This document shows, piece by piece, positions 4,831 to 37,278 of a stretch of DNA of 64,000 nt. This stretch comes from Ketobacter sp. (GTDB taxonomy: Bacteria; Pseudomonadota; Gammaproteobacteria; Pseudomonadales; Ketobacteraceae): positions 1 to 64,000 of the forward strand of contig NZ_RCHN01000004.1 in the NCBI RefSeq assembly GCF_003671495.1, in the 5' to 3' direction. The position numbers and the translations under genes were made by a program. The first letter of the stretch is position 1. Each line of letters begins with the position of its first letter. The notes under the pieces are model-generated. The model made no database searches and was not told where the DNA came from. It worked only from the letters and a program-made list of their open reading frames with translations.

Positions 4831-5064
4831 CACACCCCCGCCAACAGCGGGTTGGCTCAAGCAGCCGCGCGGGGCCAAAAAATATAACCCAAAATATATA
4901 TTTTACCTTTTTAAAACAATAGGTTATGAAAAAAATGTAAATTCAGCAAGCGCTAATATATAGATGCCAAACCAATAATCTCCTTAGTCATGGGTGACAC
5001 GAAACACAACGTTCCCGAGGTGCTTCCAGGTCACTCCCCTTTACAGACTTAAGGAGAAACAACC

Positions 5065-5799
5065 ATGGCACTCTATTTGAGCAAGAATGAATATATGTTC
5101 CGCGATTGGGTAATGCAAACAGATGCACCCACCTTTAATTACTTGGAAAAACATTTTGTAACGCAAAAACGGGTCATCAGAGATAAAACCGGGAAAGTTA
5201 AAAAGGTGATTTACTTCAGCAATATTTTAAAGGTACTTGAAAAAGAATATGGCGTAATGTGCCCGGGTCTGACTCGATCAAAATACATCTCTCATGAAGT
5301 GAAGGACATTATCAATACGGCATTTGACAACATCCTGCAGGACAAACACCTTGAGCAGGAACCGCCAGTTCCAATCAACTTCGAAACTTATGCCCATATT
5401 TTATTGAACGATATTGCCGGATCACATCTTTTTAAAACCAATGATCACGCGCTGAGATACAAATTCGCGCAACAGCGCAAACAATTGAAGAGAGATGAAG
5501 CAACCGGCAGTTTGTTGGCTAAACCGGTAAAGCACATCCATTTGGATGACAGTGAAGCCATGGTTGTTGCTCAAGCTGAATCGGAAGTGTCGGTGACCAT
5601 GCAACCGGGACTTGAGGATGAAATCGCTGATTTAAGAAAGTTTCTCCAAACCAAGGAGCCCTGGCTGGTAAAAGTTTTGGACTTGTTACTTCAAAACCAT
5701 TCCGCAACCGATATCGCGTCGATGTTGAATAAATCAAAATCCAAGATTTATCTGGATATCGACAAGATTAAAACATTCATTCGGGAATACCATGCCTGA
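5065..5799 (+). CDS. Putative HTH DNA-binding protein
   Basis: This 244-aa protein has a strong ribosome binding site (AAGGAG). The last 50 residues (VLDLLLQNHSATDIASMLNK) have the pattern of a sigma-region-4/LuxR-like helix-turn-helix, with a final helix IYLDIDKIKTFIREY. The middle is helical and Lys-rich. The N-terminal 100 residues are not recognised. A 234-bp A+T-rich gap separates it from the VirD4-like gene, so it probably has its own promoter. A role as local transcription regulator is plausible, but no operator was identified. Confidence 0.55.
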   Translation: MALYLSKNEYMFRDWVMQTDAPTFNYLEKHFVTQKRVIRDKTGKVKKVIYFSNILKVLEKEYGVMCPGLTRSKYISHEVKDIINTAFDNILQDKHLEQEPPVPINFETYAHILLNDIAGSHLFKTNDHALRYKFAQQRKQLKRDEATGSLLAKPVKHIHLDDSEAMVVAQAESEVSVTMQPGLEDEIADLRKFLQTKEPWLVKVLDLLLQNHSATDIASMLNKSKSKIYLDIDKIKTFIREYHA

Positions 5800-5886
5800 T
5801 CAATTTCCACTAAACAGGGTGTATGCAAACATGAATATCTCCGGATTGAAAATCAAGACACTTAATTCCAACAGAAGGATAGGACT

Positions 5887-6327
5887 ATGAGCCTTGAGCC
5901 ACTGCGGTTTCCCATTTTAAACTCAATGCTCTCAGACCAACCGGGGGAGCTTTTTCAGTCAAAAGCTCCTTACCTTCAGAAATATGTTCCAAAACAGCGT
6001 GAAGACCCGCCTTACCCAACGCTTTGTCAACAGGAAAACCATTCACTCTTTTCAGGCAGCGCGCCACCACCAGCCGACCAGCCAATAGTTGAATTGACCC
6101 GGACAAATCGGGACCATGAATGGAATATTAAAATATTTTTAAGCAAATACCCCTCCGATATTCATTTTTTGGTTCAGGTAAAAAATATGCTATTGTATTC
6201 GCTGACGCAGCATCAATCCGGCTGGTCCACACTCCAATTCAGTAGTGATGAGGATTTGCTGCCCATGCGTTTATCCATAGAAAACTGCAAGCCCAAACGT
6301 CTTATTATCTTTCGGTTTGATGACTGA
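5887..6327 (+). CDS. Hypothetical protein between the HTH and DotN-like genes
   Basis: This 146-aa protein is soluble, with no TM or signal peptide. The N-terminal half is Pro-rich and probably disordered. The C-terminal half (from about residue 75) alternates hydrophobic and polar residues like a small alpha/beta domain and ends in RLIIFRFDD. AGGATAGGA precedes the ATG. The DotN-like gene begins within 30 bp of its stop, so co-translation is likely. By position it could be an adaptor of the coupling-like complex, as IcmS/IcmW are in Dot/Icm, but I see no sequence support for that. Confidence 0.6.
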   Translation: MSLEPLRFPILNSMLSDQPGELFQSKAPYLQKYVPKQREDPPYPTLCQQENHSLFSGSAPPPADQPIVELTRTNRDHEWNIKIFLSKYPSDIHFLVQVKNMLLYSLTQHQSGWSTLQFSSDEDLLPMRLSIENCKPKRLIIFRFDD

Positions 6328-6354
6328 TTTCACTGATAGGATTTGCGAACCATT

Positions 6355-7107
6355 ATGAGTATAGATCCTTTCGAACATACCAAAGCTCCCCATTTTCATT
6401 TTGATCAATGTGAGCCCATCGAACTTCAATTGTCACACCCTCCTCACAGGCAAAAACCCTGCTGGATCCATAGCAGAGCCATGGGCCTGCCAAAAGAGTT
6501 TATTGACAGGATGTTACTCAAGGAAATGTACACCTGCCATTTTTGCGGTTTCACCAGCCGCAAATATCAGGAAGTGGTAGTACGCAATGGCCAGGAATGG
6601 CATCTGGATAATGTGAAAGCGGCGTGTGTTTTCTGCGCTCAGGGTTTTACCATTGACTGGGTTGCCAATATGCGCTCCGGGGTTTTATTACACCTGCCCA
6701 AAATATCACAAAATGAACTCAATCATCTGCTGAAAGTGATTTATGTATTTCGCATATCTCAAGGTGATCACGCAAATAAAGCGAGAGATATCCTGGACCT
6801 CCTGATGAAGTCGCGAGAACAGGCCAAAAAGCTGCTGTCATCGGATGATCCTTATGAACTCGCAAAACGTCTGCGCATTCCCTTGTCTGAATATAGCAGC
6901 AAAAAGCTGAAGGAGACCTTGAGCGAGATCCGACTGCTGCCTCTTGACCGAAGAATCATTAAGGAAGCTGATCTTGAATTTAACCAGTTTCCTCAAATCC
7001 TGGCTTATTGGCGTTCTAAAGACGGTCCATTGCGCGGTGGGGTTAATCGCTTTAGCCATGAGCAATTGGATGTGTATATCGATCGTTTAAAAGATAAGAA
7101 GAAATAA
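6355..7107 (+). CDS. DotN/IcmJ-like zinc protein of type IVB coupling complexes
   Basis: This 250-aa protein contains a four-Cys site of the form CxxCGF...CxxCAQ (YTCHFCGF and ACVFCAQGF), with Asn-containing HLDN between, followed by LLHLPKISQNELN and later IRLLP. This order and wording match my memory of Legionella IcmJ/DotN, an HNH-like zinc protein that binds the DotL coupling ATPase. The C-terminal part is longer than IcmJ. The start is uncertain: TTG at 6343 is too close to AGGA, and ATG at 6355 is rather far. It converges on the ankyrin gene with a 10-bp gap. With the VirD4-like ATPase it forms a coupling-complex-like pair without any other type IV secretion gene in the window. Confidence 0.75.
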   Translation: MSIDPFEHTKAPHFHFDQCEPIELQLSHPPHRQKPCWIHSRAMGLPKEFIDRMLLKEMYTCHFCGFTSRKYQEVVVRNGQEWHLDNVKAACVFCAQGFTIDWVANMRSGVLLHLPKISQNELNHLLKVIYVFRISQGDHANKARDILDLLMKSREQAKKLLSSDDPYELAKRLRIPLSEYSSKKLKETLSEIRLLPLDRRIIKEADLEFNQFPQILAYWRSKDGPLRGGVNRFSHEQLDVYIDRLKDKKK

Positions 7108-7117
7108 ATACCAAAAT

Positions 7118-10100
7118 TTAAGCGATCGGCACATCAATTAAATGTTCCAGATCTCCTGCAACAGGCTCATCATTGAGCATATCCACCATACCATTGGCCC
7201 TAATCAAAAAGTGGCCCATGAAAACGGCGTTACTGTAAAGGATAGTGCACTCAATCAGGTAGTTGCCTTCTTCATCTTGTCCATTGAAGATAACTGGTCT
7301 AGCTGTGCCTTCGATTACACTTGCTGAAGTTGAGATGTCAGTTAGCTTGATATTCCTGTCTGCTTTGGATTCAAGCACATAGAACGGTCCTTCGTCTCCT
7401 CTCACAAAGAAGCAGAAAAATTTCAAGTACTCAATCACATTGCTTTCATTCAGACGAAGCGGTGCCTTGAGGTTGACTTCATGGATCGGTGGGGACGTAC
7501 CATTTAAGCGAAACAGATTACCGGTGGTTTTATCGACCAGATAAAAAATACATAAACGCTGATTTTGCCATGTCTGATCTTTTACTCTCACCAGAACGAT
7601 ATTCTGATAAAAGGGCAATGATCGGTACACCATCTGGGTTGTTCTTGGATCAACAGCATATTTGCCGTCAATGGGATTGATCTGTTTAAGCAGCTTCTCG
7701 TCATCAATATTCAGCCACGGCGGTAACACAGGATCAATTGGCCGCTGAAATTGAATGCCGTGGTAAAGGGTCTGCAAAATATCCTCAGCAGGGCTTTCCG
7801 GTTTTGGCTTATTAACCGGCGGGTGCTGTTTTTTCTCTTCATTCTGGTTGCTAGCGATCTTCGTAGCGACTTCCGGATTTTCCGCGGTGGTTTTCTTCTG
7901 CGTCTCCACCGGTTTTGCATTACCATCGTCGCTCGCCGGTTGTGGTTTTTGGTATAGGCTTTGCGCTTGCTGCTGACGCAGCAATAGTAGGTTTTCAGCA
8001 GCAATCATCCTGTTTTCTCTGCTAAATAAACCGGCTGCTCCGGCTTGTTTAAGCACCGAAACAATCTCATCGAATCCGTTTTCAGCAGCAAGAAAAATGG
8101 CGGGCAGATTGTCTGCGCCATGGAGATCCAATTGAGCACCATAACTGATTAACAATTTGCACACTTCTGCTGCCCCGGATCGAGCGGCAATCTGCAAAGG
8201 TGTAAGGCATTCATCCAACGTTGCCATATCAATAGACAAAGAGTTAGTTCTCAGTATGATGCCTACTATATTCGGCAAATTGTACAAGGCAGCAAAATGC
8301 AGCGCTGTCCAACCATCCCGGCTGCTCTGATTGATATCCGCACCCGCTTCAATCAGATGAGCACTCAAATCATCAAAGCGACGACGAATGGCATAGTGTA
8401 AAGGCGTAAGACCATTTTCATCCGCTGCGTTGATATCAGCTCCATGTTTGAGAATCAGGTTGATAACAGCAATTGACTGACTTTCAATTGCACTGTGGAA
8501 CGGTGTTTTACCAAAATCACAGCGTAAATGCATAGTCAAACTCTGATCAATTAAATACTCAATACATTCTATTGCGCCTCGTGCACAGGACAAATGCAGT
8601 AAGGATCGTCCCTCACGATCCGTTTCATTGATGCTGGCTCCGTAACTGAGCAACAAACTGAGCATGGCAACGTCGTTTTTGCTGATCGCCGCGCTGAGGG
8701 GACTCAACTCTTCATATTGAGGATATCGGTAAGGATAGGCGTTGGCCTTGAGTAAGGCTGCTGCGATGTTGCTGTTGCCGTTGTTGATGGCAACAATCAA
8801 CGGCGTTTCGTTATTCTTATTCAGCGCGTTAATATCGACGTTGCACTCCAATAAAATATCCATTAACTGCCTATTACCGCTTTTAGCCAGAACATGCAGC
8901 AGCTGATTTCCATCCTGGTTCCGCTCAGCAAGCGATACGTGCCGATCCGCACACAATAATTGAAAGATATCCACCAGACTCTTTTCTACCGCGAGCCAAA
9001 GCGGTAACTCATCAACGTTTTTCGAATAGTGATTCCGATTGATTTTTGGAAACTCCAACAGAGTCTTGACCGTTTCATGGTTCTGCGTATCCACAGCGAT
9101 CCATAAAGCCTGGTGGGAATCTTTGTCCTGCGATTCGAAATCCAGTAGACGACTTGTCGCCATGGTACGAATACTGGCGATACTGTTTTGTTTAACCGCA
9201 AGCAAAAATGGAGTCAGTTGTTCTTTACTCACGGCGTTGACATCGATGCCTTCCTGTTTCAGCAGAGTAGCCACGATATCCGGTTGATTCTGACGACACG
9301 CAATATGTAATGGAGCATCACCGTAACCGTTAGGAATATTGACATCGATTCCCGATTGCAGCAGAAACTCCACACATTCAGGATAGTTGCTTTCGCTACC
9401 GATGCCTTCCAATGCAAAGCCCTGACAGCATAAATGTAGTAAATTCCAACTCTGCTTTGACAGATAAGCAAGGTTTCCATTCAACGACAGCAGAAATTTT
9501 ACCACCGCGGTATTGCCACGCAGCGCTGCCAGGCTCAATGCATACCAGTTATCGACCTCTCCCTTAAAAGACTCCGTTAACGCTTGCTCAGTAATGGGAT
9601 AGCAGGCCATCAGCCGCTTTATAACATTGAGGTTCCCACCCTCAGCGGCAAACAGCAGTGCCGTACATTGATGTTTGGATCGGGTAAAAGGATCGGCACC
9701 TCGTCCGAGCAGATAATTCACCGCTGCATATTGCCCGTGATAAGCCGCCGTCATAAGCGGTGTAAACAGCTCATGACATTTGGCATTGGCTGATAAACCG
9801 AATTCCAGCAGGATTTCCAGAATTCGGGGATTACCGCCACGGGCTGCAAAACTGAGGATACCGGTGCCCTGTCCGTTGACATAATCGATATTCGCACCAT
9901 GCCTCAACAGTAAATCCACCACGGCGAAGCGAGCGCACTTAACCGCCACAACCAACGCAGGAACACCGTTAGAGGTCTCACAATTCACATCGATTCCTTG
10001 ATTCAGGAAAAACTCGATGGCCTCATATTGTCCATTGGCGATAGCCACATGGTAACAGTTGTAATCATCATCGTTGAATTCTTCGAATTGATCTGCACCA

Positions 10101-11407
10101 CGATACAAAAATTGAATACTGGCCAAACTACCATTGGCCGCAGCGCTTATCAGCGCGGTATTATTCCTGCTGTCACGCACATCATGAACTGCATTATCCA
10201 GGTCGAGCAGTAATTCCAAAATGGCTACACGGTTGTGGGCTGCCGCCAGGTGAAAAGCGGTTATTCCGTTGTCGTTATGGGCGTATAGTATGGTGGGTAA
10301 GGCGCTGACAACAGACTTCACCTCCTGGCTGCGGTTGGCGATGATGGCGTCAAAAAGCTGCGCGATCTGCTGTTTGAGCCTGGCACTGCCTGTTTTGGCG
10401 AAATCCAGGACATTGTCAGCGTTGACTTCGGTTCTAGCATCGGCGACGCTAATCGGGTTCCGGGTATTCCTGATCTCAGCATCGGTCAAAGTCGATGCAG
10501 CATCGAAATCGATCCTGCTGTCCAAACCTATGGACGGCTCCAGCGTAACACTCGTATCCTGAACGGCACTCTTAAAGGCATGATTAAAGCCATAACTACG
10601 CAGCATGGTGGCAGGAGAGGGTAGGGTTACCTTACCGATGCTCCACTGCAAATCCGGCAAATTCGACGCGAATCTGCGCGCTTTGTCTTCATCTCCCAGT
10701 ACCAATGACTCAATCACATGGGAACGGCCAAGTAATGTGGAAAAGGATGAGAGCGGTAACTCCAATAACGGCCGCACTTTGGTAAAACGCAACAAATCCT
10801 GGCGGTTCTTGGCATCGCTGGAACTGATTTTATTGGCTGCTTTGTGCATCTCTTCAGCCAGTAACTCAGCTGCCGTCATGGGATCGGCATAACCCAGAGC
10901 CACCCAGCCGATTCGATTCAAGTAATCCTTTTCAATCAGATTGACTTCTTTGGCGATGCGATTTCTGGCTTTATTAAAATATTGCAACGCCAGTTGCGCC
11001 ACCTGACGCGTGCGGGAACCCAATTCATAGGGGCAATGTTTGATTCCCCATTGATTCAAAGCCAACATCAAATGCCAGCGGACTTCCTTATCCATTCGGT
11101 AATAGCCGCACCCCAATTCACAAGTTAACAGGCCAAACAGTACATCGGCATCCAAAGCGGTATTGAATTTATCCGGCAGTTGCAAAAAATTAACTCTGAC
11201 CAGAGCAACGATGTCAGCATTGAATAATTCAAAAGGCGCCAGGTGAGCCGACAATAACAACGCAGCTTCACCATACTCACGGGAATATCGACGAATCAAA
11301 TCGGTGGCTTGCGATTGCTGCAGAGGTGAACCGTCCCAAACTTCAAGGCTATCAGGATTATCAGATACGGCTTCAGCGGTGGTTACGGTGTTGTCGGTAT
11401 TCATCAT
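7118..11407 (-). CDS. 1429-aa ankyrin-repeat protein with VMAP-like N-terminus and a C-terminal domain shared with the AAA+ ATPase
   Basis: Residues 1 to about 250 are helical. The stretch around residues 50-120 (AHLAPFELFN, then YYRMDKEVRWHLML) resembles the conserved region of proteins linked to MoxR-vWA conflict systems. About 22 ankyrin repeats follow (about 375-1115; for example LTPLHYAIRR, GWTALHFAA). Then comes a low-complexity Gln/Lys/Pro linker (about 1130-1215). The last 170 residues form a domain also found in the AAA+ protein at 15779-17542, sharing NGTSPPIH/DGTSPPIH, EYLKFFCFFV/DYLRFFCAFV and DEP. Its start codon overlaps the vWA stop (shared base 11407), so the two are translationally coupled. 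I infer a scaffold or sensor that contacts other components through the shared domain. Confidence 0.8.
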   Translation of the reverse strand: MMNTDNTVTTAEAVSDNPDSLEVWDGSPLQQSQATDLIRRYSREYGEAALLLSAHLAPFELFNADIVALVRVNFLQLPDKFNTALDADVLFGLLTCELGCGYYRMDKEVRWHLMLALNQWGIKHCPYELGSRTRQVAQLALQYFNKARNRIAKEVNLIEKDYLNRIGWVALGYADPMTAAELLAEEMHKAANKISSSDAKNRQDLLRFTKVRPLLELPLSSFSTLLGRSHVIESLVLGDEDKARRFASNLPDLQWSIGKVTLPSPATMLRSYGFNHAFKSAVQDTSVTLEPSIGLDSRIDFDAASTLTDAEIRNTRNPISVADARTEVNADNVLDFAKTGSARLKQQIAQLFDAIIANRSQEVKSVVSALPTILYAHNDNGITAFHLAAAHNRVAILELLLDLDNAVHDVRDSRNNTALISAAANGSLASIQFLYRGADQFEEFNDDDYNCYHVAIANGQYEAIEFFLNQGIDVNCETSNGVPALVVAVKCARFAVVDLLLRHGANIDYVNGQGTGILSFAARGGNPRILEILLEFGLSANAKCHELFTPLMTAAYHGQYAAVNYLLGRGADPFTRSKHQCTALLFAAEGGNLNVIKRLMACYPITEQALTESFKGEVDNWYALSLAALRGNTAVVKFLLSLNGNLAYLSKQSWNLLHLCCQGFALEGIGSESNYPECVEFLLQSGIDVNIPNGYGDAPLHIACRQNQPDIVATLLKQEGIDVNAVSKEQLTPFLLAVKQNSIASIRTMATSRLLDFESQDKDSHQALWIAVDTQNHETVKTLLEFPKINRNHYSKNVDELPLWLAVEKSLVDIFQLLCADRHVSLAERNQDGNQLLHVLAKSGNRQLMDILLECNVDINALNKNNETPLIVAINNGNSNIAAALLKANAYPYRYPQYEELSPLSAAISKNDVAMLSLLLSYGASINETDREGRSLLHLSCARGAIECIEYLIDQSLTMHLRCDFGKTPFHSAIESQSIAVINLILKHGADINAADENGLTPLHYAIRRRFDDLSAHLIEAGADINQSSRDGWTALHFAALYNLPNIVGIILRTNSLSIDMATLDECLTPLQIAARSGAAEVCKLLISYGAQLDLHGADNLPAIFLAAENGFDEIVSVLKQAGAAGLFSRENRMIAAENLLLLRQQQAQSLYQKPQPASDDGNAKPVETQKKTTAENPEVATKIASNQNEEKKQHPPVNKPKPESPAEDILQTLYHGIQFQRPIDPVLPPWLNIDDEKLLKQINPIDGKYAVDPRTTQMVYRSLPFYQNIVLVRVKDQTWQNQRLCIFYLVDKTTGNLFRLNGTSPPIHEVNLKAPLRLNESNVIEYLKFFCFFVRGDEGPFYVLESKADRNIKLTDISTSASVIEGTARPVIFNGQDEEGNYLIECTILYSNAVFMGHFLIRANGMVDMLNDEPVAGDLEHLIDVPIA

Positions 11408-12672
11408 TACGACCTTAGGTAGTCAACGGCTTGCAGCAGATCATTGGCGGAAAGCTCAAACATAGGCATTATAGGATGGGAATCAAAAACCGCTGTAAAT
11501 TCCGTAAGCCAACGATTTGCCGGCATGGGATTGATCCACAGCGTTCTGCGATTGGATTTCGTAGCTAGCTTTTCCAAAAAAAGGTCTAACCGTTTTATTC
11601 GCGTTGAATCGAATTCCCGGGAAGCGGCTCCACAATCGGAAAACACCACGATATAGGAGTGCTGGTTTGCTTGCAGGATTGAGTCACTGCTTTTAGACAT
11701 AAGCAATCTGGGATCCAGGTATAAATCCGTTCCAGGGATCTTATTAAAAAAGTATATCTGCACTGACTTTAGGCGGCTGAGTTTGGATAATGCCGTTTTG
11801 GCCAGAATTTCACTGACCTTTTTCCAGGGAGTCATATTGTTATTAACATCGATTAACAATAATAATTCTGCCGTATTGAATGCCCTGTCAAGCATCACCG
11901 GATTCACCAAAAAACCGGTTTCGCAAAGATGCGCAACGGTTTTGTTAATATCCACCAGGTCCCTTTCCGCTATTTTAGTGGGTTTGTAAAGTCGACGCCA
12001 TAACGCCAAAAGCCAAAGTTCCCCCAATTCCGGTTCCACAACCCAATGAAAAGGTCGGCTTGAATCAAGAGTAATTTCCCCAAGCACTGGCATCACGATA
12101 TCTGAACTTGTACTATCGGAATCTCCCCCCATGGAAGCGTCTTCTACCGTGTCAACACCCACTGTCTGCTCGCCACCGGAAACCTGCGACTGCCGACTTG
12201 GAGTATCACCTTTAGCATCGTCATTCACGCCTGAACCAAGCGGTGGTTCAGCAGCAGTCTCCTCGGTCTGGCTGTGTCGGGGAAAAACCACTGCCGGTTC
12301 CTCGAATTCCAAGGCGTCGGTTTCAGCCTCCAAGGTGTCGATGGACAGCTCGAACCATTGATAAATGTTCTGATTATCTGCAAGCGGAATTTCCTGGCAA
12401 ATCACGTTTTGAATCAAATCTTTTTCCTGCTGGCTGCGCGCCCACAATGTCTGACACAACCACACCAGCGCAGAGCGGATTTGTAACGAGATACCGTTAA
12501 AGTCGTCGTTATTGCTGTTACGGCGAGCTGCATCCAGTTTTTCACGCAACGTGATAAAGCGGCTACTGTAAATCCGCAGCGACTGCAAACCTTCCAAATA
12601 GTCTCGGATACCCAAGGGCAGCCCCCTGGCTTTCAATTGCAGAAATAATCCGTATAACAGTAAATGATTCAT
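11407..12672 (-). CDS. vWA-domain (CoxE-like) protein, partner of MoxR ATPase
   Basis: This is a 421-aa protein. Residues 1-110 have the helical N-terminus of CoxE/MoxR-partner proteins (LKARGLPLGIRDYLEGL). Residues 120-200 are acidic, Ser/Thr-rich and probably disordered. Residues 205-420 look like a von Willebrand A domain, with LLLIDVNNN at about 271-279 in the place of the MIDAS motif (canonical DxSxS) and VVFSDCG as the later metal-site strand. The two MIDAS serines are Asn, so metal-dependent ligand binding may be altered. It lies 44 bp downstream of the MoxR gene and overlaps the ankyrin gene by one base. By family knowledge, vWA proteins act as substrate adaptors for MoxR ATPases. Confidence 0.75.
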   Translation of the reverse strand: MNHLLLYGLFLQLKARGLPLGIRDYLEGLQSLRIYSSRFITLREKLDAARRNSNNDDFNGISLQIRSALVWLCQTLWARSQQEKDLIQNVICQEIPLADNQNIYQWFELSIDTLEAETDALEFEEPAVVFPRHSQTEETAAEPPLGSGVNDDAKGDTPSRQSQVSGGEQTVGVDTVEDASMGGDSDSTSSDIVMPVLGEITLDSSRPFHWVVEPELGELWLLALWRRLYKPTKIAERDLVDINKTVAHLCETGFLVNPVMLDRAFNTAELLLLIDVNNNMTPWKKVSEILAKTALSKLSRLKSVQIYFFNKIPGTDLYLDPRLLMSKSSDSILQANQHSYIVVFSDCGAASREFDSTRIKRLDLFLEKLATKSNRRTLWINPMPANRWLTEFTAVFDSHPIMPMFELSANDLLQAVDYLRS

Positions 12673-12716
12673 TTCGTCGCCAACATAGTTTGTGACATTT
12701 CAGTTATTTGGTGCAG

Positions 12717-13676
12717 CTATTTTGGCAACAGACTGGGTTGCAGCAATTTCAAATCTTCACCCAGCTTGAACAGCAGTCGCCAGTAGGGAGGGTTGCTATT
12801 GGTCAAGTCCTCCGCTTTGATATTTCTTAGATGCAGCACATGGACCCAATCAATAAGCTCTGCCGTCGCCGGTACTTTTGCCACATTGGAGTTGATGGCC
12901 TCCTTCCTGATTTCCAGAAAACTTTTTACCGCAGCCTCGATCAGCTCCTTGGAAATGGTTTCCAGAGTGATCACTTCTTTTTCTGTGGCCAGTTTGGCAA
13001 GGTTGGCGTTGACAATATCCACCAGCATTGACTCTTTGTTGGGGAAATTGAGTTCCAGGTAAAAACAACGGCGCAAAAAAGGTTTGGACAGAGGCTTGGA
13101 ACGGTTACTGGTAAAAATCACAATGGGCTTGAAGCCTTGCTCAGGCCCCTCTATCCAATGCCCCAGCTGAGTTTGATCCATTGCTTCCTGATGTGAGTTC
13201 TCTGGTATTTCAGTAATCTGAAATTTGAAATTTTCGATGACATAAAGCAGGTCATCGGCAAAATCGATGTCTGCCTTATCGATTTCATCGATCAACACCA
13301 CACTGGGTTCGCCTTGCTGAATAGCCTTTCCAAGAAACTCCAGTTCCACATAATTGTAGGCTTGTGCCGCTTTATTGATTTGAGCCTCATGCTTTGATTG
13401 ACTGTCCTGGAGTCTTCCCAACGCATTGTAGCGATAGAGTAAATCGTTGGCTCTGGAGGTGCTTTTAACAGGCACTATTTTCGGCCCGTCCTTGATTCCC
13501 AAATCCTCGGCAATGGCATGCGCCAACTGTGTTTTGCCGCAACCGGGCTCACCCTCCACCACTAACGGTTTACCCAGTTTAATGGCGAAATCCACTATCT
13601 CCCTGTCCATCGGATCGATGAGATAGGATTGACAACGATCGCCGGTGAAATCGGGATATTGGTTGGTTTTACGCAT
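12717..13676 (-). CDS. MoxR-family AAA+ ATPase
   Basis: This is a 319-aa protein. Walker A GEPGCGKT is at residues 42-49, Walker B VVLIDEIDKAD around residue 130, and sensor 1 VIFTSNRSK followed by an arginine-finger context LRRCFY at about 193-207. The length and layout are those of short MoxR ATPases, which remodel or insert cofactors into partners together with a vWA protein. That partner gene lies immediately downstream. All catalytic positions I can check are intact, unlike the STAND-like neighbour upstream. In conflict systems the MoxR-vWA pair is thought to act as an NTP-dependent switch. The particular target here is unknown. Confidence 0.85.
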   Translation of the reverse strand: MRKTNQYPDFTGDRCQSYLIDPMDREIVDFAIKLGKPLVVEGEPGCGKTQLAHAIAEDLGIKDGPKIVPVKSTSRANDLLYRYNALGRLQDSQSKHEAQINKAAQAYNYVELEFLGKAIQQGEPSVVLIDEIDKADIDFADDLLYVIENFKFQITEIPENSHQEAMDQTQLGHWIEGPEQGFKPIVIFTSNRSKPLSKPFLRRCFYLELNFPNKESMLVDIVNANLAKLATEKEVITLETISKELIEAAVKSFLEIRKEAINSNVAKVPATAELIDWVHVLHLRNIKAEDLTNSNPPYWRLLFKLGEDLKLLQPSLLPK

Positions 13677-13715
13677 AAGTTTGATCCATTTCGTTAATCC
13701 AGAATGATGCTTTCG

Positions 13716-15590
13716 TTACTGCCCTGATTGATCAGTTGCTATTTCTATGAATTTATCGAATTTCGGTTCTTTGGCTTTGTGGTCGGTGCAACATTGTTCA
13801 TCTATTTTGTTGACTTTCCACGATGCCAGTACATAAAAAGATGACTTCAATTGCCGCTTTGCGCCGTTTTCCAATTGTTTTTCCAGACTGGTATAAAGCG
13901 GCCGCCAGATCTTGTTGAGAAACTCTGTGTGGCTTACAACATTTTGAACATTGTCCAATACCAACATCAGCGGTCGGTTGACGGCGATGATTTCTGTCGA
14001 CAGTCGGTTGAGCTGCTTAACGTAGTCTGATTGTTCGTTGACGGTAATTTTCAGTTCCCGATACAGCAGATCCCAAATGCAATCGATTTTGCTCTCAGAA
14101 GCCATATTCAGGTAAAACGGCTTTTCCACTCCCCAAATGTCAGACTCTTTTAAAAACTTCATCGTTTGTGTTACCTGTTTCTGTACTTTGCCGTGAACCA
14201 AAATACAAAAACCCGGCAGGGGTTTGATCTTATTTTGCTTGGCAAAGGATGCGAGAATATCTTTGCCTAAGGAGGTGATGGATTCGTCTTTCGCCGACTC
14301 AGTAAAAACAGCATGAATGGTCATTTTTGGTTTGCCGCCACTCTGCTGGGAATGTCCCATCAAAGTTGGAGTTTCCACTCTGGCGACAATGGAATTTTCG
14401 ATATTTTGTTTGAGGTCATCCCGTGAATTAACGGCTCGATGATGGCCCCATTCACGGTGGGCGGTGCTGAAGATAAGATGTTCCAAATTGGCAAGTTCAC
14501 TTTCATCTTCCATGGCAAACCTCTCGATAGAGGTCACGTCGTTTGGAGCGGTTGAAAGTCTTTTTTTCAGATATTTTATCCGTTCAATTTCAACGCTCTG
14601 GTCCAGATCGCTATCAGGTTCCGGTTCAAAGATAAAAATGGGAATTGCATACTGCTCTGTGACTTCACAGGAAAATTTCAATTCATAGTGGCGCTTGGAA
14701 TTTTGCGGCTTTTCCTTGGTGGGTTTTATAAACTTCAACCGTTCTCCATAGCTTTTACCAATGATGACACAATAGATATCATAGTTTCCCTGCTGGATGG
14801 TATATTTGATTTCCTGATATATTTTTTCGTTGATTTGGTAGAGATCTTCTGCGGAAGCGGTGGTCGCTCTTTCCGCAATGTCTTCATTGGAAACTTCCAA
14901 TTCAACAGCTTCAGCTGCATCCGCTTTGGCAACGGATTCGTAGTCAATCGTAAAAAAACAGTGACTCAGTTTCCTTACAAGATGTTCCTTGATATCCTGT
15001 TCCAGGAATTTAACATCATCATGCACGCCCAATACCAGCACGTTCTGTGGCCGATCGGCTTGTTTGGGTTTATGGATTTTCCCGGGAAAAAAAGCGCGAA
15101 AAACATCATCGTCCTGTTGATCACCTTGAAAAAATCTATCCGTGATGTCTATCAAGGAATGTATCACTGCTTCTAAATTGGAACTCCAGTCATTTTTAAT
15201 CAGACTCACTGTAGCGGCGAGATTCATGATTGAAACAAAAATCTTCCATTTCAGCCCCTGGTAATTTTCCACATCCTTATCTGACAAATGACCACGCATA
15301 CTGTTAAACTGCTTCCAATACTTGTCATAGGTGGATCTGTTCAAACCCACTTTCCTTAAAGCTTTTTCCCTTTTATCTGCTTCTGTACCGGTAGTGGCTT
15401 GATCATATTTGAACTGCATCCGACATACGTATACAAGCATTGCCGCAGTAACGACGAGTATCTTATCGATAGAAAACTCTTTACCCCTGAGCTTTCTGCT
15501 TTTTGTAACGATTGAGTCGTATTGAGCTTTCACCTGGCCTTTTTTCCTCGATACAGTGTTCAATGGGAAATAACAAACAGCTTTGGTCAA
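13716..15590 (-). CDS. DUF4062-like plus degenerate STAND-like protein
   Basis: This is a 624-aa protein. Residues 1-160 are helical and unrecognised. Residues about 183-330 (NVLVLGVHDD, YDIYCVIIGKSYGER, then IPIFIFEPE) follow the Rossmann-like order of DUF4062/TIR-related domains. Residues about 425-624 look like a P-loop fold with the nucleotide site eroded: VHGKVQKQ stands where GxxxxGK[ST] is expected, and LMLVLDNVQN resembles Walker B. This fits the inactive STAND (iSTAND) domains known from NTPase-based conflict systems. The start codon is TTG without a clear ribosome binding site; an internal GTG at about residue 19 is an alternative. It is followed by the MoxR gene after 39 bp. Confidence 0.6.
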   Translation of the reverse strand: MTKAVCYFPLNTVSRKKGQVKAQYDSIVTKSRKLRGKEFSIDKILVVTAAMLVYVCRMQFKYDQATTGTEADKREKALRKVGLNRSTYDKYWKQFNSMRGHLSDKDVENYQGLKWKIFVSIMNLAATVSLIKNDWSSNLEAVIHSLIDITDRFFQGDQQDDDVFRAFFPGKIHKPKQADRPQNVLVLGVHDDVKFLEQDIKEHLVRKLSHCFFTIDYESVAKADAAEAVELEVSNEDIAERATTASAEDLYQINEKIYQEIKYTIQQGNYDIYCVIIGKSYGERLKFIKPTKEKPQNSKRHYELKFSCEVTEQYAIPIFIFEPEPDSDLDQSVEIERIKYLKKRLSTAPNDVTSIERFAMEDESELANLEHLIFSTAHREWGHHRAVNSRDDLKQNIENSIVARVETPTLMGHSQQSGGKPKMTIHAVFTESAKDESITSLGKDILASFAKQNKIKPLPGFCILVHGKVQKQVTQTMKFLKESDIWGVEKPFYLNMASESKIDCIWDLLYRELKITVNEQSDYVKQLNRLSTEIIAVNRPLMLVLDNVQNVVSHTEFLNKIWRPLYTSLEKQLENGAKRQLKSSFYVLASWKVNKIDEQCCTDHKAKEPKFDKFIEIATDQSGQ

Positions 15591-15778
15591 GGGGCAAGGA
15601 AAACGGACTCTTTCCTGTTCCCAAGATGCACTCGGTATCGACTATTTTTTGCAGTTGCATTAACAATCAGAAAGCAAGCGACATGGATACCTACTCACCG
15701 TAAAAAACTACCATATTTTATACAAGCGATTAAGTATCCAAGCATACTAATCATGGGTCTTCCCGTCTCCCCACAATG

Positions 15779-17542
15779 TCAATGCACCAACCTTGGATTC
15801 TGGTGTGATAAAGCAATATTAGTGTCAATTAACCTTACATCCAGGCGCAAAATTTCGATCTTGCCCAAAACAGTGGTACTGGCCTTCGCCAAGCGCTTAC
15901 TGCGAATGGTGGCGTTGACCATGGCTGCCTGCATATGCCGTTTCATGTCCCGGATATCGGTGCAGACACTGGCAATGATCGCAGTTACCTCATCTGGCAG
16001 ATCAGCCGCAAAATGTTCCACCACATCGATCTCCTCCAACAAATCCTGATAAATGGAATACACCATTTGTTTACGTTGCTTGGCATTGGGTTTCACAATA
16101 TTGAAACATTGAAAACGCGAAAGGATGGCATCAGGAATGTCCTCCAGACCGTTACTGGTGGCAATCCAGTTAATGAACTGACAATTGATATTGACGTTCA
16201 GGAATTCATCCACAAAGTTCCTGGCTGAGTTGGGTTCCAACAGTGTGTAAAGCGTATTCGTCACCGGATACTGCTCGCCGCCGGCAATTTTATCCATTTC
16301 CTCCAGCACGATGATCCCGTTGGCGCAGCGGTTTTCCATTTGGGTATCGGCGATCAACCCAGGCTGGCCCGATCGCCATACCCGACTGGAACCGGATAAC
16401 ACAAAGGCGGCACTGGTGGTGGCAACGTCGATGGTTCTGGAAGGCAGCGTCAATACCTTGGCCAATTCCTGGATATACCTTGATTTGCCCGTGCCTGGCG
16501 GTCCATTCAACAGCATACGTGGCAATTTGATTTCACCTTTTTTGAGCGTGGTTGAAAACAACAGCGCCTCCCGGATCACCGCGGTAACGGCGGCAAAGAT
16601 GGGAAATATTTCATCGAGTCTGTCGAACTCAGCCATATCGCCGCTATATCTTTTCAGCGGCAGATAACCCTGGGTTTTTTCCAACGCGCTGGTGTAGGTT
16701 TCAAAATAGCGGGTTTGGTCACCCTGGGTTTTTTCTTTTTCCCTGAGCAATTGGTCAAAGTTGAATACCTCAACCTGGGTCTCCTGCTCTGAGTTTGGTG
16801 GTTGTCGGTTGCGTCGGCGTTCGGTTCGTTCCGCTCGCTCCCTGATTTCTCGTGCCGGCGTCACAAATTTTTCCTGATATTGGCCATACTGCGTGTGCTG
16901 CTGACGCAACGGAAAAAATCGTTTTGGCTTTGGCAGCGTTTCAAATGCCGCCAACGGTTCATCGTCGTTCATGGTAATCATGCCGTTGGGTTCAACGGTA
17001 AAATTCACCTTAAACAACGATGCCTCATACAAAACACTGGTGTTGAATTGCCATCCGTTACGCAGATTTTCCTGTGAAATGCCCAGAGTCAGGGATTTCA
17101 CTGCCTGCTGCGCTTCGTCATTGTCGGCAATCAAGGGGCTGTCGTTACTGGAAACAATATGGAATGATCCCTCCTCGCCCTGAACAAAAGCACAAAAGAA
17201 ACGCAGATAATCTTCAGCGCTGTGATCGTTCAGCGCAAATCGGGTGGCCTGATTCAGATAGTGGATCGGCGGGCTGGTGCCGTCCAGATAGACCATCGGC
17301 GTACCGTCTTCCTGCATGACAAAGTAGGCAGGAAATTCGTTGTCCTGCTCCAGACCGGTTACCCGCAGCAGAATCAACTCTGGATAGAACGATAATGTAG
17401 TCCAGGATACCGAGACGGAATCAGCAGCCAATTCCATTTCTGCAAATCGATCTGCCAACATGGATTCTACCTGTTTAAACAGACCCATATCATCATTCAC
17501 CCAGCACTCTTCAGTAGTTAATAAGTCGATTGCGTGTTGCAT
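15779..17542 (-). CDS. Lon-like AAA+ ATPase with N-terminal shared domain, no protease domain
   Basis: This is a 587-aa protein (an in-frame ATG 9 bp upstream abuts GAGG; the ATG at 17542 has proper spacing). The residue numbers here count from that upstream ATG. Residues about 50-205 are the domain shared with the C-terminus of the ankyrin protein. A basic linker with many Arg (235-250) follows, then an AAA+ module with Walker A NGPPGTGKS (349-357), Walker B IIVLEEMDK (413-421) where Glu replaces the usual Asp, and sensor 1 WIATSN near 464. No Ser/Lys protease domain follows. It is the first gene of the minus-strand run and faces the ubiquitin-like module across a 180-bp divergent region. 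I infer an unfoldase or remodeller recruited by the shared domain. Confidence 0.75.
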   Translation of the reverse strand: MQHAIDLLTTEECWVNDDMGLFKQVESMLADRFAEMELAADSVSVSWTTLSFYPELILLRVTGLEQDNEFPAYFVMQEDGTPMVYLDGTSPPIHYLNQATRFALNDHSAEDYLRFFCAFVQGEEGSFHIVSSNDSPLIADNDEAQQAVKSLTLGISQENLRNGWQFNTSVLYEASLFKVNFTVEPNGMITMNDDEPLAAFETLPKPKRFFPLRQQHTQYGQYQEKFVTPAREIRERAERTERRRNRQPPNSEQETQVEVFNFDQLLREKEKTQGDQTRYFETYTSALEKTQGYLPLKRYSGDMAEFDRLDEIFPIFAAVTAVIREALLFSTTLKKGEIKLPRMLLNGPPGTGKSRYIQELAKVLTLPSRTIDVATTSAAFVLSGSSRVWRSGQPGLIADTQMENRCANGIIVLEEMDKIAGGEQYPVTNTLYTLLEPNSARNFVDEFLNVNINCQFINWIATSNGLEDIPDAILSRFQCFNIVKPNAKQRKQMVYSIYQDLLEEIDVVEHFAADLPDEVTAIIASVCTDIRDMKRHMQAAMVNATIRSKRLAKASTTVLGKIEILRLDVRLIDTNIALSHQNPRLVH

Positions 17543-17721
17543 ACCATCCATCCTCTTTTAGTTCATTTGCTATTTATATGGACGGTTCACACACACATTT
17601 TCCAATGCTGAATCGAATAATCAAAAATTTCAGATCAATTGGAAAAACACTATTTTCACTGTCCTTTACCTAACAACCAAGCAAACAACATCAATGCTCA
17701 ACAACAGAAAAGGTAGTGAAG
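17543..17721. promoter_or_regulatory. Divergent intergenic region between the AAA+/MoxR run and the ubiquitin-like run
   Basis: This A+T-rich gap separates two outward-facing gene runs and must hold promoters for both. I could not pick convincing -35/-10 pairs by eye. A shared region of this size suggests the two halves can be co-regulated. Confidence 0.5.
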
Positions 17722-18252
17722 ATGGACGACAATAATAATGACCCTACGAATGGCGTCGACGACTTCGAAGCAATGACACTGGATAACAGTTATGAGGATG
17801 AACAGTTCCACCAGGCCAACGAGGAGGCACAACAATATTTGGAAAGCATTGAGGCAACGCAGGCAAGGGTAGAGGCATTCAGCGGCTTTGTGGACGGCCT
17901 GGATGCCATGTCTGAAACCTATGAATCGGTTCAAGCCGATCCCTACGATTACGGTTTCGATCACCAGGATCACCACTATGACCACGCCGTTGACGGCATG
18001 TTTATGGGTGTTGCCGCAGGTATTCATATGTCACAGCAAATTGGCAGGGCCTGCCATGATTACTTTAGTTCACACTCTGAAGATTCAAGCTCCCTTGAAG
18101 AAACCGATTTGGATAACACCCAAACTGAGAGTTTCGAATTTGAAGAGGACCACCAGGACGACTTTGCTGACCAGGATGATTTTATCACTGAACAGGAAGA
18201 GCTTTGGGACGACTCTTTCGAAAGCGACATCGCTGACGATGACGAATTTTAA
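17722..18252 (+). CDS. Highly acidic hypothetical protein heading the ubiquitin-like module
   Basis: This 176-aa protein is very rich in Asp/Glu, above all in the last 70 residues. It has a central His/Asp/Tyr segment (YDYGFDHQDHHYDH) and one short hydrophobic stretch (GMFMGVAAGIHMS). I chose ATG 17722 because AAGG lies about 9 bp upstream; GTG 17716 is too close. It precedes the E2-like gene by 30 bp. I do not recognise a family. The charge profile would suit an adaptor, a DNA mimic or a conjugation target, but nothing here decides between them. Confidence 0.65.
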   Translation: MDDNNNDPTNGVDDFEAMTLDNSYEDEQFHQANEEAQQYLESIEATQARVEAFSGFVDGLDAMSETYESVQADPYDYGFDHQDHHYDHAVDGMFMGVAAGIHMSQQIGRACHDYFSSHSEDSSSLEETDLDNTQTESFEFEEDHQDDFADQDDFITEQEELWDDSFESDIADDDEF

Positions 18253-18282
18253 TGAATTCCCAAATTAACGGAGACGCTTATT

Positions 18283-18771
18283 ATGGTATTACAACGAAAA
18301 ATCAAACCCTCCCAACCCACTCGACGCGATCATATGCTGCTGCAACTGAACAGGGGGGTGCAGCAGTTACTCGACAGTTTTGAACCACCCAAAGACGGTA
18401 GTAAACGGATTTCCCGCTTAGTGGCCGGCAACCGCTTGCTGGCAGTACAACAATTTCCCCTGCCGGACCGATTCCTGCCTAAAGACAATGTTAATCTGGT
18501 TGTGGATCTGGATCCGGTGCCGGGAGCGCCGCCAAAAGGTTTTTTCATCATCGAAAAGGATAATCGCAGTACCATCGATGCCATTTCCGCAGCGTTGGGC
18601 GGACACTTGTTCAATGCTGAAACCGCGCCTTACGACACGCCCAAATTCAAAGGCGGCATCTGGATCTGTCATCACTATGCCGGCCATACCTGGAAGTTCA
18701 ACGCCAACAACCCGGCGGCCGGTGACAACATCGCTAAATTCCTCGAAACCTTTTATGCGCGAATCATGTAA
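18283..18771 (+). CDS. Prokaryotic E2-like protein candidate
   Basis: This 162-aa protein has a helical N-terminus, then a beta-rich core (VNLVVDLDPVPGAPPKGFFI), then IWICHHYAGHTWKFN and PAAGDNIAKFLETFY. The pattern strand-Pro-rich loop-strand, Cys-His-His, Trp, GDN, C-terminal helix resembles the bacterial E2 family E type, in which a His follows the catalytic Cys. Cys129 is the only cysteine in the protein, which makes it the obvious thioester candidate. The assignment rests as much on neighbours (a Gly-ending small protein and a JAB-E1 fusion) as on sequence. GGAG precedes the ATG. Confidence 0.6.
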   Translation: MVLQRKIKPSQPTRRDHMLLQLNRGVQQLLDSFEPPKDGSKRISRLVAGNRLLAVQQFPLPDRFLPKDNVNLVVDLDPVPGAPPKGFFIIEKDNRSTIDAISAALGGHLFNAETAPYDTPKFKGGIWICHHYAGHTWKFNANNPAAGDNIAKFLETFYARIM

Positions 18772-18847
18772 TAACCGGGAGGATGATCGCGATTAAAAAA
18801 ATATTCAAACCACATGGAATCGAGTGCAAAACAACGACCTTATGTTA

Positions 18848-18877
18848 TTAACACGGCAATTAAAATTGTCGGGTTAA
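18848..18877. repeat. Imperfect inverted repeat between E2-like and ubiquitin-like genes
   Basis: Arms 18848-18861 and 18864-18877 pair at 12 of 14 positions around a 2-nt loop, in the 139-bp gap before the 67-aa gene. No T-run follows, so it is not a standard terminator. It might set relative expression of the modifier gene. Confidence 0.4.
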
Positions 18878-18910
18878 TAGTACCAAACAATGAAAACCCA
18901 GAGGTGATTT

Positions 18911-19114
18911 ATGGCTAATCGTAAAAAAGCAACCATTGAAGGTGAAGTATTTGAAGTGGATGACAGCGTCAAAGTAGGAGAACTGATTCCCGCTGAAGTG
19001 TCATCGGTTATCGATCAAAAAACCGGTAAGGAATATCAACGCAGCGAGATCGCTCAAATGCCCGCGGCAGGCACCGATATGCGTCTCAATTTCGTGAAAC
19101 TGGAGAAAGGGTGA
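18911..19114 (+). CDS. 67-aa ubiquitin-like modifier candidate ending in glycine
   Basis: This small protein begins with a predicted beta hairpin (KATIEGEVFEVDDSVKVGEL), continues with a short polar middle, and ends with a strand and tail MRLNFVKLEKG. The size, beta-grasp-like strand pattern and exposed C-terminal Gly fit a single ubiquitin-like modifier. Its position between E2-like and JAB-E1 genes is where such modifiers sit. Because the Gly is already terminal, no proteolytic maturation would be needed. Sequence similarity to known modifiers is too weak to assert by eye. GAGGTGAT is a good ribosome binding site. Confidence 0.55.
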   Translation: MANRKKATIEGEVFEVDDSVKVGELIPAEVSSVIDQKTGKEYQRSEIAQMPAAGTDMRLNFVKLEKG

Positions 19115-19129
19115 AAACGGGAGCGGCAT

Positions 19130-20593
19130 ATGAAAACGATTTTAAAAATCCTCGAAAACACCTACCAGTCCGTAGTGAGTTATCACAATTCACACTCGGC
19201 GGAGCGGGTCAGTTTTCTGACCGGCTCCCTGGTTAAAGGCAAAGATCGACAAATGATTCTGGTCAGTGGAGAACCCATCTTCCTGGCGGAAGATTGCTAC
19301 GAAACTACTACGCGGAGTTATCTCCGCCTGTATCCCGACGTGGCAGCGCCGCTGATGCAACATTTTGTGGAAGGCTTTGATCCGGTGTTGATCAACATTC
19401 ATCATCACCCGTTTTCTGAAAGCGGCACCGGTTTCTCTGCGGTGGATGATGAAGACGATATTCGCATGGACAAAGTCTTACGCTCCATCCGCGATGAAAT
19501 GGGGCTGCCGTTTATCAATGTGTCCATGGTTTTGGATCAAAACAGTTTTGATGCGCGCATCACTGATACCAGTTCTACTCAGGTTTTCACATCCATCGAT
19601 CAGGTTCAATGTATCGGCAGCGACCGCTTTCATATTCGCTACCCCAACAGTGTTCAACCCCAGCAATTGTTAACGGATGAGATAAGCTGCAGGCAGAACT
19701 TCATCGATCCACCAATTCAACATTGGCTGAAGCATGCGCATATCGGTATTTGTGGAGCCGGCGGCACCGGCAGTATCACTGCCGAGGCACTGCTACGCTA
19801 TAACTGCGGTCACATTACCATTGTGGATGACGACGTGGTTGAAACCTCCAACCTGAATCGATTACAAGGTGTCGGCTATCAGGATGTGGGGCAACACAAA
19901 GTCAAAGCCTTGCGTCGCCATTTAAAACGGTTATCACCGAAAACCCACTTAACCACTGTTCATTCAGCGATTCATGAGCAAAAAGCATTTGATGCGTTAA
20001 TGCAGTGTGATGTGGTGTTCAGTACCGTGGATAACGCCTATGCCCGAGCGGCCCTGAACCAACTCTCGGTACAGGGCATGATTCCTTTATTCGATGTGGG
20101 TGTGGAAGTAGCCCTGGAACCCACCAATTTTCTGTATCGGGTGTTCAATGTTTTACCAGGGGCATCGGCCTGCATGATGTGCAGTCAGTTCGAGATGGTG
20201 GACATGAACCAGGTCAATCGGGCGTCTTTGAGTGCCGAGCTGGAAGCGGAATATCGCGCCCGAGGTTATATCACCGGAGTGGAGCAAGCAAAAGCAGCTT
20301 CGGTGTACGGCTTGAACCTGATGGCGGTGGGCGCAATGATGACAGATTTTCTGAATTATCTTTGCGGCTTTCGTGACATGACCGTGCTGCGATATTCCAA
20401 CTTTCAGGAGCGTCGATTGGAGACCACCGAACAACAGGATTATCCTGCCAACAAACCGGCAGCAGATTGCCCGGTTTGTTCCAGCTATCTGGGACGCGGT
20501 TATGATCTGCCCACACCCTATTTAAACAAGACTGAGCATCAGCAAAAAAGCGTCCAGCAACTGTTTTTGGAAAACAGCAATATCTTCTCTTGA
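19130..20593 (+). CDS. JAB/MPN-E1 (ThiF-like) fusion protein
   Basis: This is a 487-aa protein. The N-terminal domain (about 1-175) carries a JAMM metalloprotease motif: His91-x-His93-Pro94, then Ser103 and Asp106, i.e. HxHP(x8)SxxD, one residue longer than the canonical spacing. From residue 205 an E1/ThiF adenylation domain follows: GICGAGGTGS nucleotide loop (207-215), IVDDDVVETSNLNRL, FSTVDNAYAR. Two CxxC pairs (CMMC at about 348-351, CPVC at 447-450) suit the structural zinc of ThiF/MoeB-type enzymes. The fusion couples activation of a modifier with its removal. GGGAG precedes the ATG, 15 bp after the modifier candidate's stop. Confidence 0.85.
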   Translation: MKTILKILENTYQSVVSYHNSHSAERVSFLTGSLVKGKDRQMILVSGEPIFLAEDCYETTTRSYLRLYPDVAAPLMQHFVEGFDPVLINIHHHPFSESGTGFSAVDDEDDIRMDKVLRSIRDEMGLPFINVSMVLDQNSFDARITDTSSTQVFTSIDQVQCIGSDRFHIRYPNSVQPQQLLTDEISCRQNFIDPPIQHWLKHAHIGICGAGGTGSITAEALLRYNCGHITIVDDDVVETSNLNRLQGVGYQDVGQHKVKALRRHLKRLSPKTHLTTVHSAIHEQKAFDALMQCDVVFSTVDNAYARAALNQLSVQGMIPLFDVGVEVALEPTNFLYRVFNVLPGASACMMCSQFEMVDMNQVNRASLSAELEAEYRARGYITGVEQAKAASVYGLNLMAVGAMMTDFLNYLCGFRDMTVLRYSNFQERRLETTEQQDYPANKPAADCPVCSSYLGRGYDLPTPYLNKTEHQQKSVQQLFLENSNIFS

Positions 20594-20604
20594 GGAGTGT
20601 GTTT

Positions 20605-37254: not shown

Positions 37255-37278
37255 GAATAACTTTGGTTGATTAGGACC

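What the first reader, a model, noticed from the sequence alone, without database searches (positions are those of the whole stretch)
7121..17404. An uncharacterised domain of about 160 aa shared by the ankyrin protein (C-term) and the AAA+ ATPase (N-term)
DNA 7121-7627 and 16925-17404 encode colinear segments with GTSPPIH, [ED]YL[KR]FFC.FV.G[DE]EG.F, a gap, then a TxLYxxxxFxxxF...NGM...DEP block. The two proteins are otherwise unrelated. Sharing of a private domain by two components of one locus suggests it docks both on a common partner, or lets them exchange.
Basis: seen in the sequence. Interest (0 to 1): 0.8.

Follow-up and report, generated by a model that had tools for sequence, protein, structure and literature searches.

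The report
Shared docking domain in defence-like operon
Two otherwise unrelated proteins of one bacterial, immunity-like operon do carry copies of the same uncatalogued domain, which turns out to be widespread and to sit next to sensor or motor ATPases elsewhere, so it is probably a plug that brings parts of such machines together.

Summary
ANK residues 1231-1418 and AAA+ residues 17-202 align over 196 aa (31% identity, BLASTP E 4e-22), and the match survives masking of GTSPPIH. A profile built without the AAA copy finds it at E 3e-42. The domain (DOM) is not private: 65 distinct copies were collected. It is in 11 of 398 genomes of the phylum and 25 of 385 of the Micavibrio class. It has no Pfam, NCBIfam, PADLOC or PHROG model. 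AlphaFold gives a confident alpha+beta fold (pLDDT 88, pTM 0.86) without a confident structural relative, and no invariant catalytic-type residue was seen. Elsewhere DOM is fused to nSTAND1(-ankyrin) proteins, paired with TraG-like ATPases, or close to a NACHT-WD40 protein. In the window the DOM genes open and close a five-gene operon whose middle is iSTAND-like/MoxR/vWA. Effector-associated domains (EADs) are arranged like this in cyanobacterial MoxR-vWA systems. Best reading: an EAD-like coupling domain. It is not filed as an EAD, because no core component carries it. DOM:DOM contact versus a shared partner is unresolved.

The parts
7154..7717 (-). DOM copy 1, C-terminal domain of the ankyrin protein (aa 1231-1418)
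   Evidence: AlphaFold pLDDT 88, pTM 0.86
16946..17503 (-). DOM copy 2, N-terminal domain of the AAA+ ATPase (aa 17-202)
7118..11407 (-). Ankyrin-repeat protein, 1429 aa; last gene of the operon; start overlaps the vWA stop by 1 nt; low-complexity linker (about aa 1160-1230, by eye) before DOM
   Evidence: ORF and Pfam Ank_2 E 4e-102; sequence
11407..12672 (-). vWA protein, CoxE-like
   Evidence: PF05762 E 6e-4, below cut-off; BLASTP E 3e-30 to the vWA of a Nostoc EAD1/MoxR/vWA system
12717..13676 (-). MoxR-type AAA+ ATPase
   Evidence: PF07728 E 4e-13; 39-40% identity to MoxR of Nostoc and Crinalium EAD1 systems, E 6e-51 and 8e-56
13716..15590 (-). Probable inactive-STAND (iSTAND-like) third component
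   Evidence: PF19995 iSTAND E 0.02, below cut-off; no similarity to the cyanobacterial third components by BLASTP or hhalign; hhhhDN strand but no GK[ST] P-loop by eye
15779..17551 (-). DOM + charged linker + Lon-type AAA+ module (aa about 345-549), no protease domain found; first gene of the operon
   Evidence: (TIGR00763 lon AAA region E 1e-16)

Best explanation
DOM is a mobile, probably non-enzymatic protein-interaction domain of NTPase-centred biological conflict (immunity-like) complexes. In this operon it couples an ankyrin-repeat protein (recognition or effector arm) and a Lon-type AAA+ remodeller to the same iSTAND-like/MoxR/vWA machine. Shown: the homology, terminal placement next to linker-like segments, operon-like gene order, absence of known catalytic families, recurrence beside STAND/NACHT/TraG-type NTPases, and a confident alpha+beta fold. 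Inferred: that DOM mediates binding, that the bound partner is the other DOM or a shared core component, and that the system acts against invaders.
For: Two and only two copies in the genome, both in one operon-like gene run whose first and last genes carry them. The same layout is seen with EAD1 on Nostoc and Crinalium plasmids: EAD1 genes flank or contain the third component beside MoxR and a CoxE-like vWA, and the window's MoxR and vWA match theirs at E about 1e-56 and 1e-30. DOM is fused to nSTAND1-Ank in S. meliloti and G364, to nSTAND1 beside a SIR2-TIR protein in G364, and lies in a gene overlapping nSTAND1-Ank in G578. G578 has one nSTAND1 gene and one DOM, and they are adjacent; G364 has six nSTAND1 genes and both of its DOMs are fused to nSTAND1. 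DOM genes touch or overlap TraG-like ATPase genes in S. meliloti, G564 and G516; G564 has one TraG-family gene in all. A tandem-DOM protein lies 1.3 kb from a NACHT-WD40 gene. Conserved positions are aromatic, hydrophobic, Gly or Asn. EADs were proposed as coupling adaptors on the same kind of evidence (PMC7159879).
Against: None of the three core proteins carries DOM, unlike the EAD rule. Most DOM genomes show a single copy (9 of 11, 15 of 25, at E <= 1e-5), so DOM:DOM coupling between two proteins cannot be the general rule. The two window copies are not each other's nearest relatives by identity, although the tree does not exclude a pair (p-AU 0.24). The tandem-DOM model gives no packing (pTM 0.50). 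Some Micavibrio genomes carry two or three chromosomal standalone copies beside ordinary genes, which suggests an older role unrelated to defence. Association counts were made after choosing the families.
Confidence: 0.5

Rival explanations
1. DOM does not pair with DOM; it is a regulatory subunit that binds a P-loop NTPase directly. Two copies are present here because two different clients must reach the same NTPase (MoxR or the iSTAND-like protein).
For: DOM is found fused to, or encoded by a gene touching, an NTPase: fused to nSTAND1-Ank in L014 and L033, separate in L035; TraG-like + DOM gene pairs in three lineages. Most DOM genomes have one detected copy.
Against: Several architectures have no NTPase in sight (pentapeptide-repeat proteins L008, L041, L043; standalone Micavibrio genes). 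In the window the iSTAND-like and MoxR genes lack DOM although fusion is common elsewhere.
Confidence: 0.27
2. DOM is a small-ligand or peptide sensing module read out by different output proteins, and its doubling here is two sensors rather than a coupling device.
For: Extreme variety of partner proteins; conserved GTSPPIH-like loop and YLRFFC helix; standalone forms in Micavibrio.
Against: No matching ligand-binding fold: best Foldseek PDB hit is latexin at E 0.011 with TM 0.2, best VIA Z 5.8. No invariant polar pocket residue was seen.
Confidence: 0.13
3. DOM is a type IV secretion docking tag: the ankyrin protein is a translocated effector and DOM addresses it to a coupling ATPase.
For: An IcmJ/DotN homolog (6343-7107, E 2e-16 to 5x1h) and a coupling-protein-like ATPase (3145-4830, PF02534 E 5e-10) lie directly beyond the ankyrin gene. 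DOM genes touch TraG-like genes in three lineages, and one Micavibrio DOM lies about 8.5 kb from an IcmJ-like gene.
Against: The DOM-paired TraG-like proteins show no N-terminal transmembrane segment by eye and no other secretion gene is annotated near the S. meliloti pair. DOM is also on AAA+, STAND and membrane proteins that are not plausible cargo.
Confidence: 0.07

Closest known systems
Effector-associated domains (EADs) of MoxR-vWA ternary systems (Kaur et al. 2020, PMC7159879; PMC8195603)
   Same: Non-catalytic terminal domain present twice in one operon, on otherwise unrelated proteins, with MoxR + vWA + a third component in the middle; copies also elsewhere on STAND proteins; DOM genes sit at the outer positions where EAD1 genes sit in Nostoc.
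   Different: No match to any Pfam EAD model; larger (about 165-190 aa); no copy on iSTAND-like, MoxR or vWA; copies in the operon are not closest relatives by identity; often single copy per genome.
iSTAND-type MoxR-vWA ternary conflict system
   Same: MoxR and CoxE-like vWA clearly related to those of cyanobacterial ternary systems; third component with a weak iSTAND match.
   Different: iSTAND match below the curated cut-off; extra AAA+ and ankyrin proteins joined by DOM; divergently placed ubiquitin-like conjugation genes next door.
nSTAND1-ankyrin (NLR-like) proteins
   Same: In S. meliloti plasmids and G364 the ankyrin block is followed by DOM, as in the window protein.
   Different: The window ankyrin protein has no NTPase; the NTPases are separate genes.
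Latexin/cystatin-like alpha+beta folds
   Same: Predicted order of helix and antiparallel sheet, twice.
   Different: Below the level that shows a shared fold (Foldseek E 0.011, VIA Z <= 5.8); the two halves do not align by profile.

Membership tests
Effector-associated domain (EAD) | One copy fused to a core component (VMAP, iSTAND, Ubl, GAP1) | tested here: not met
   hmmsearch hits only ANK and AAA among ten locus proteins; iSTAND-like, MoxR and vWA have none
Effector-associated domain (EAD) | Further copy fused to an effector or signalling protein, often in an adjacent gene of the operon | tested here: met
   First and last genes of the same-strand gene run carry DOM; effector or signalling role of the partners is inferred
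Effector-associated domain (EAD) | Small, no enzymatic features | tested here: inconclusive
   No catalytic family match and no invariant catalytic-type residue, but 165-190 aa is large; activity untested
Effector-associated domain (EAD) | Copies in neighbouring genes most closely related to each other | tested here: inconclusive
   ANK copy 53% identical to a Micavibrio copy versus 31% to the AAA copy; tree agrees but p-AU for the pair 0.24
Effector-associated domain (EAD) | Sequence match to a known EAD family | tested here: not met
   No EAD Pfam hit in any of 14 members at E <= 1
iSTAND MoxR-vWA ternary system | MoxR + vWA pair, vWA of CoxE type | tested here: met
iSTAND MoxR-vWA ternary system | Third component is an inactive STAND module | tested here: inconclusive
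   PF19995 E 0.02, 15.7 bits against cut-off 24; no hhalign match to Nostoc/Crinalium third components
Type IV secretion substrate | Translocation through the secretion system | not testable with these tools
   Only gene neighbourhood available

The most novel reading that the evidence does not exclude
DOM is a new class of coupling domain, ranging from standalone chromosomal genes in Micavibrio-type bacteria to fusions and gene pairs with NLR-like STAND-ankyrin proteins, TraG-like ATPases, a Lon-type AAA+ protein and pentapeptide-repeat proteins; in the window it assembles a ternary-type immune machine standing beside a Bub-like ubiquitin-type conjugation operon.
Probability: 0.25. Interest if true: 0.75.

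Novelty: new variant of a known kind. Interest (0 to 1): 0.5.

Why it matters
A domain absent from the family libraries searched, with a confident predicted fold, now marks a set of candidate NTPase-driven conflict systems and gives one concrete, testable hypothesis: which proteins a shared plug brings together. It could be used to find further components of STAND-ankyrin and MoxR-vWA systems, whose assembly rules are mostly predicted rather than tested.

Tried and rejected
Chance similarity around one motif: rejected by masking. 'Private to this locus': rejected. A known domain under another name: no hit in Pfam, NCBIfam, PADLOC or PHROGs; PDB sequence search gave only a doubtful E 0.002 hit to a designed protein with no stretch passing on its own. 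Known fold: no Foldseek match at E <= 0.001 in PDB or in viral models, VIA best Z 5.8. Internal duplication suggested by the secondary-structure order: not supported by half-versus-half hhalign. Viral origin: none in viral contigs or phage records. DOM:DOM packing from the natural tandem protein: model too poor. N-terminal domain of the iSTAND-like protein shared with the S. meliloti STAND protein: not supported. Two complementary DOM subfamilies (ANK-like and AAA-like) found one of each per locus: hinted at by the tree for the window and S. meliloti, but deep branches are weak and two other multi-copy loci do not follow it. Search for the same operon in 369 genomes of the class with the iSTAND-like protein: only the window's own genome.

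Full report
Observation. It is real: 31% identity over 196 aa, E 4e-22, far above 1000 shuffles also with the GTSPPIH motif masked. A profile built without the AAA copy still finds it at E 3e-42 and finds no locus protein other than these two. True extents are 7154-7717 and 16946-17503. The rest of the two proteins shows no similarity.

Who else has it. The domain (here DOM) matched no model of Pfam, NCBIfam, PADLOC or PHROGs. A scan of species genomes gave nine loci, plasmid records five more, and whole-genome searches found it in 11 of 398 genomes of the phylum and 25 of 385 genomes of the class that holds Micavibrio; 65 distinct copies were extracted. It was not found in viral contigs or phage records. 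Five Micavibrio-type genomes have two or three standalone copies of about 200 aa, some beside ordinary chromosomal genes. The ankyrin copy is 53% identical to one of these and pairs with it in the tree (support 95/95). Its nearest known relatives are therefore Micavibrio-type genes, not the AAA+ copy, although a tree with the two window copies together is not rejected (p-AU 0.24).

Partners. In S. meliloti plasmids DOM is the C-terminus of an nSTAND1-ankyrin protein, and 1.4 kb upstream of that gene, beyond a patatin gene, a second DOM gene sits beside a TraG-like ATPase gene. G364 has one nSTAND1-ankyrin-DOM protein and one nSTAND1-DOM protein, the latter next to a SIR2-TIR protein. G578 has a DOM gene overlapping an nSTAND1-ankyrin gene by about 20 nt; a frameshift in a former fusion is also possible. 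G564 and G516 have DOM genes overlapping TraG-like ATPase genes. A Bacteroidota locus has two DOMs in one protein, 1.3 kb from a NACHT-WD40 gene. Other copies are in pentapeptide-repeat proteins, downstream of an Hsp70-like gene (L040, L086), or alone. Whole-genome counts argue against coincidence: G578 has a single nSTAND1 gene and a single DOM; G364 has six nSTAND1 genes and both DOMs are in two of them; G564 has a single TraG-family gene. These families were chosen after seeing the loci, so no formal probability is claimed.

The window operon. Five same-strand genes with gaps of 188, 39 and 44 nt and one 1-nt overlap: DOM-AAA+, iSTAND-like, MoxR, vWA, ankyrin-DOM. MoxR and vWA match those of Nostoc and Crinalium plasmid systems (E about 1e-56 and 1e-30). 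In Nostoc the gene order is EAD1-trypsin / EAD1 third component / MoxR / vWA / pentapeptide-TIR-EAD1-CHAT. DOM thus occupies the outer positions that EAD1 occupies there. The iSTAND assignment of the window's third component is weak (PF19995 E 0.02) and is left as probable.

Structure. AlphaFold of the ankyrin copy: pLDDT 87.9, pTM 0.86; order helix, strands, helices, strands. No confident structural relative in PDB or viral models. The natural tandem protein was too poorly modelled to show packing. The most conserved positions over 65 copies are mostly aromatic, hydrophobic, Gly and Asn, as expected of a structural or binding module; this is inference.

Mechanism. Most likely a coupling domain working like an EAD. 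EADs are defined by a copy on a core component (PMC7159879), which was tested and not met, so DOM is not filed as an EAD. Whether coupling is DOM:DOM or through a shared partner is open; the frequent single-copy genomes weigh against obligatory DOM:DOM pairing. The biological role as defence is inferred from neighbours only.

Noticed in passing
window 17716-21807, +: Divergent gene run with a JAB/E1-type fusion (19130-20593) whose best solved match is Citrobacter BubCD (E 1.3e-21) and a small E2-like candidate without database match (18283-18771).
   Followed up: partly
window 3145-7107, +: IcmJ/DotN homolog (6343-7107; E 2e-16 to 5x1h) and a coupling-protein-like ATPase (3145-4830) right beside the ankyrin gene; the IcmJ-like protein is 44% identical to one in a Micavibrio locus.
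   Followed up: partly
L034 13133-14518, -: SIR2-TIR protein next to an nSTAND1-DOM protein.
   Followed up: no
L014 11858-20552: S. meliloti plasmid island: TraG-like ATPase without an obvious membrane segment, DOM gene, patatin and nSTAND1-ankyrin-DOM.
   Followed up: partly
L040 7038-10323, +: Hsp70-like 842-aa protein directly upstream of a standalone DOM gene; a homolog also sits upstream of DOM in L086.
   Followed up: no
window 37267-40512, +: TPR-CHAT protein (PF12770 E 4.5e-47), followed at 43-64 kb by ORFs that read like a type VI secretion cluster (by eye).
   Followed up: no
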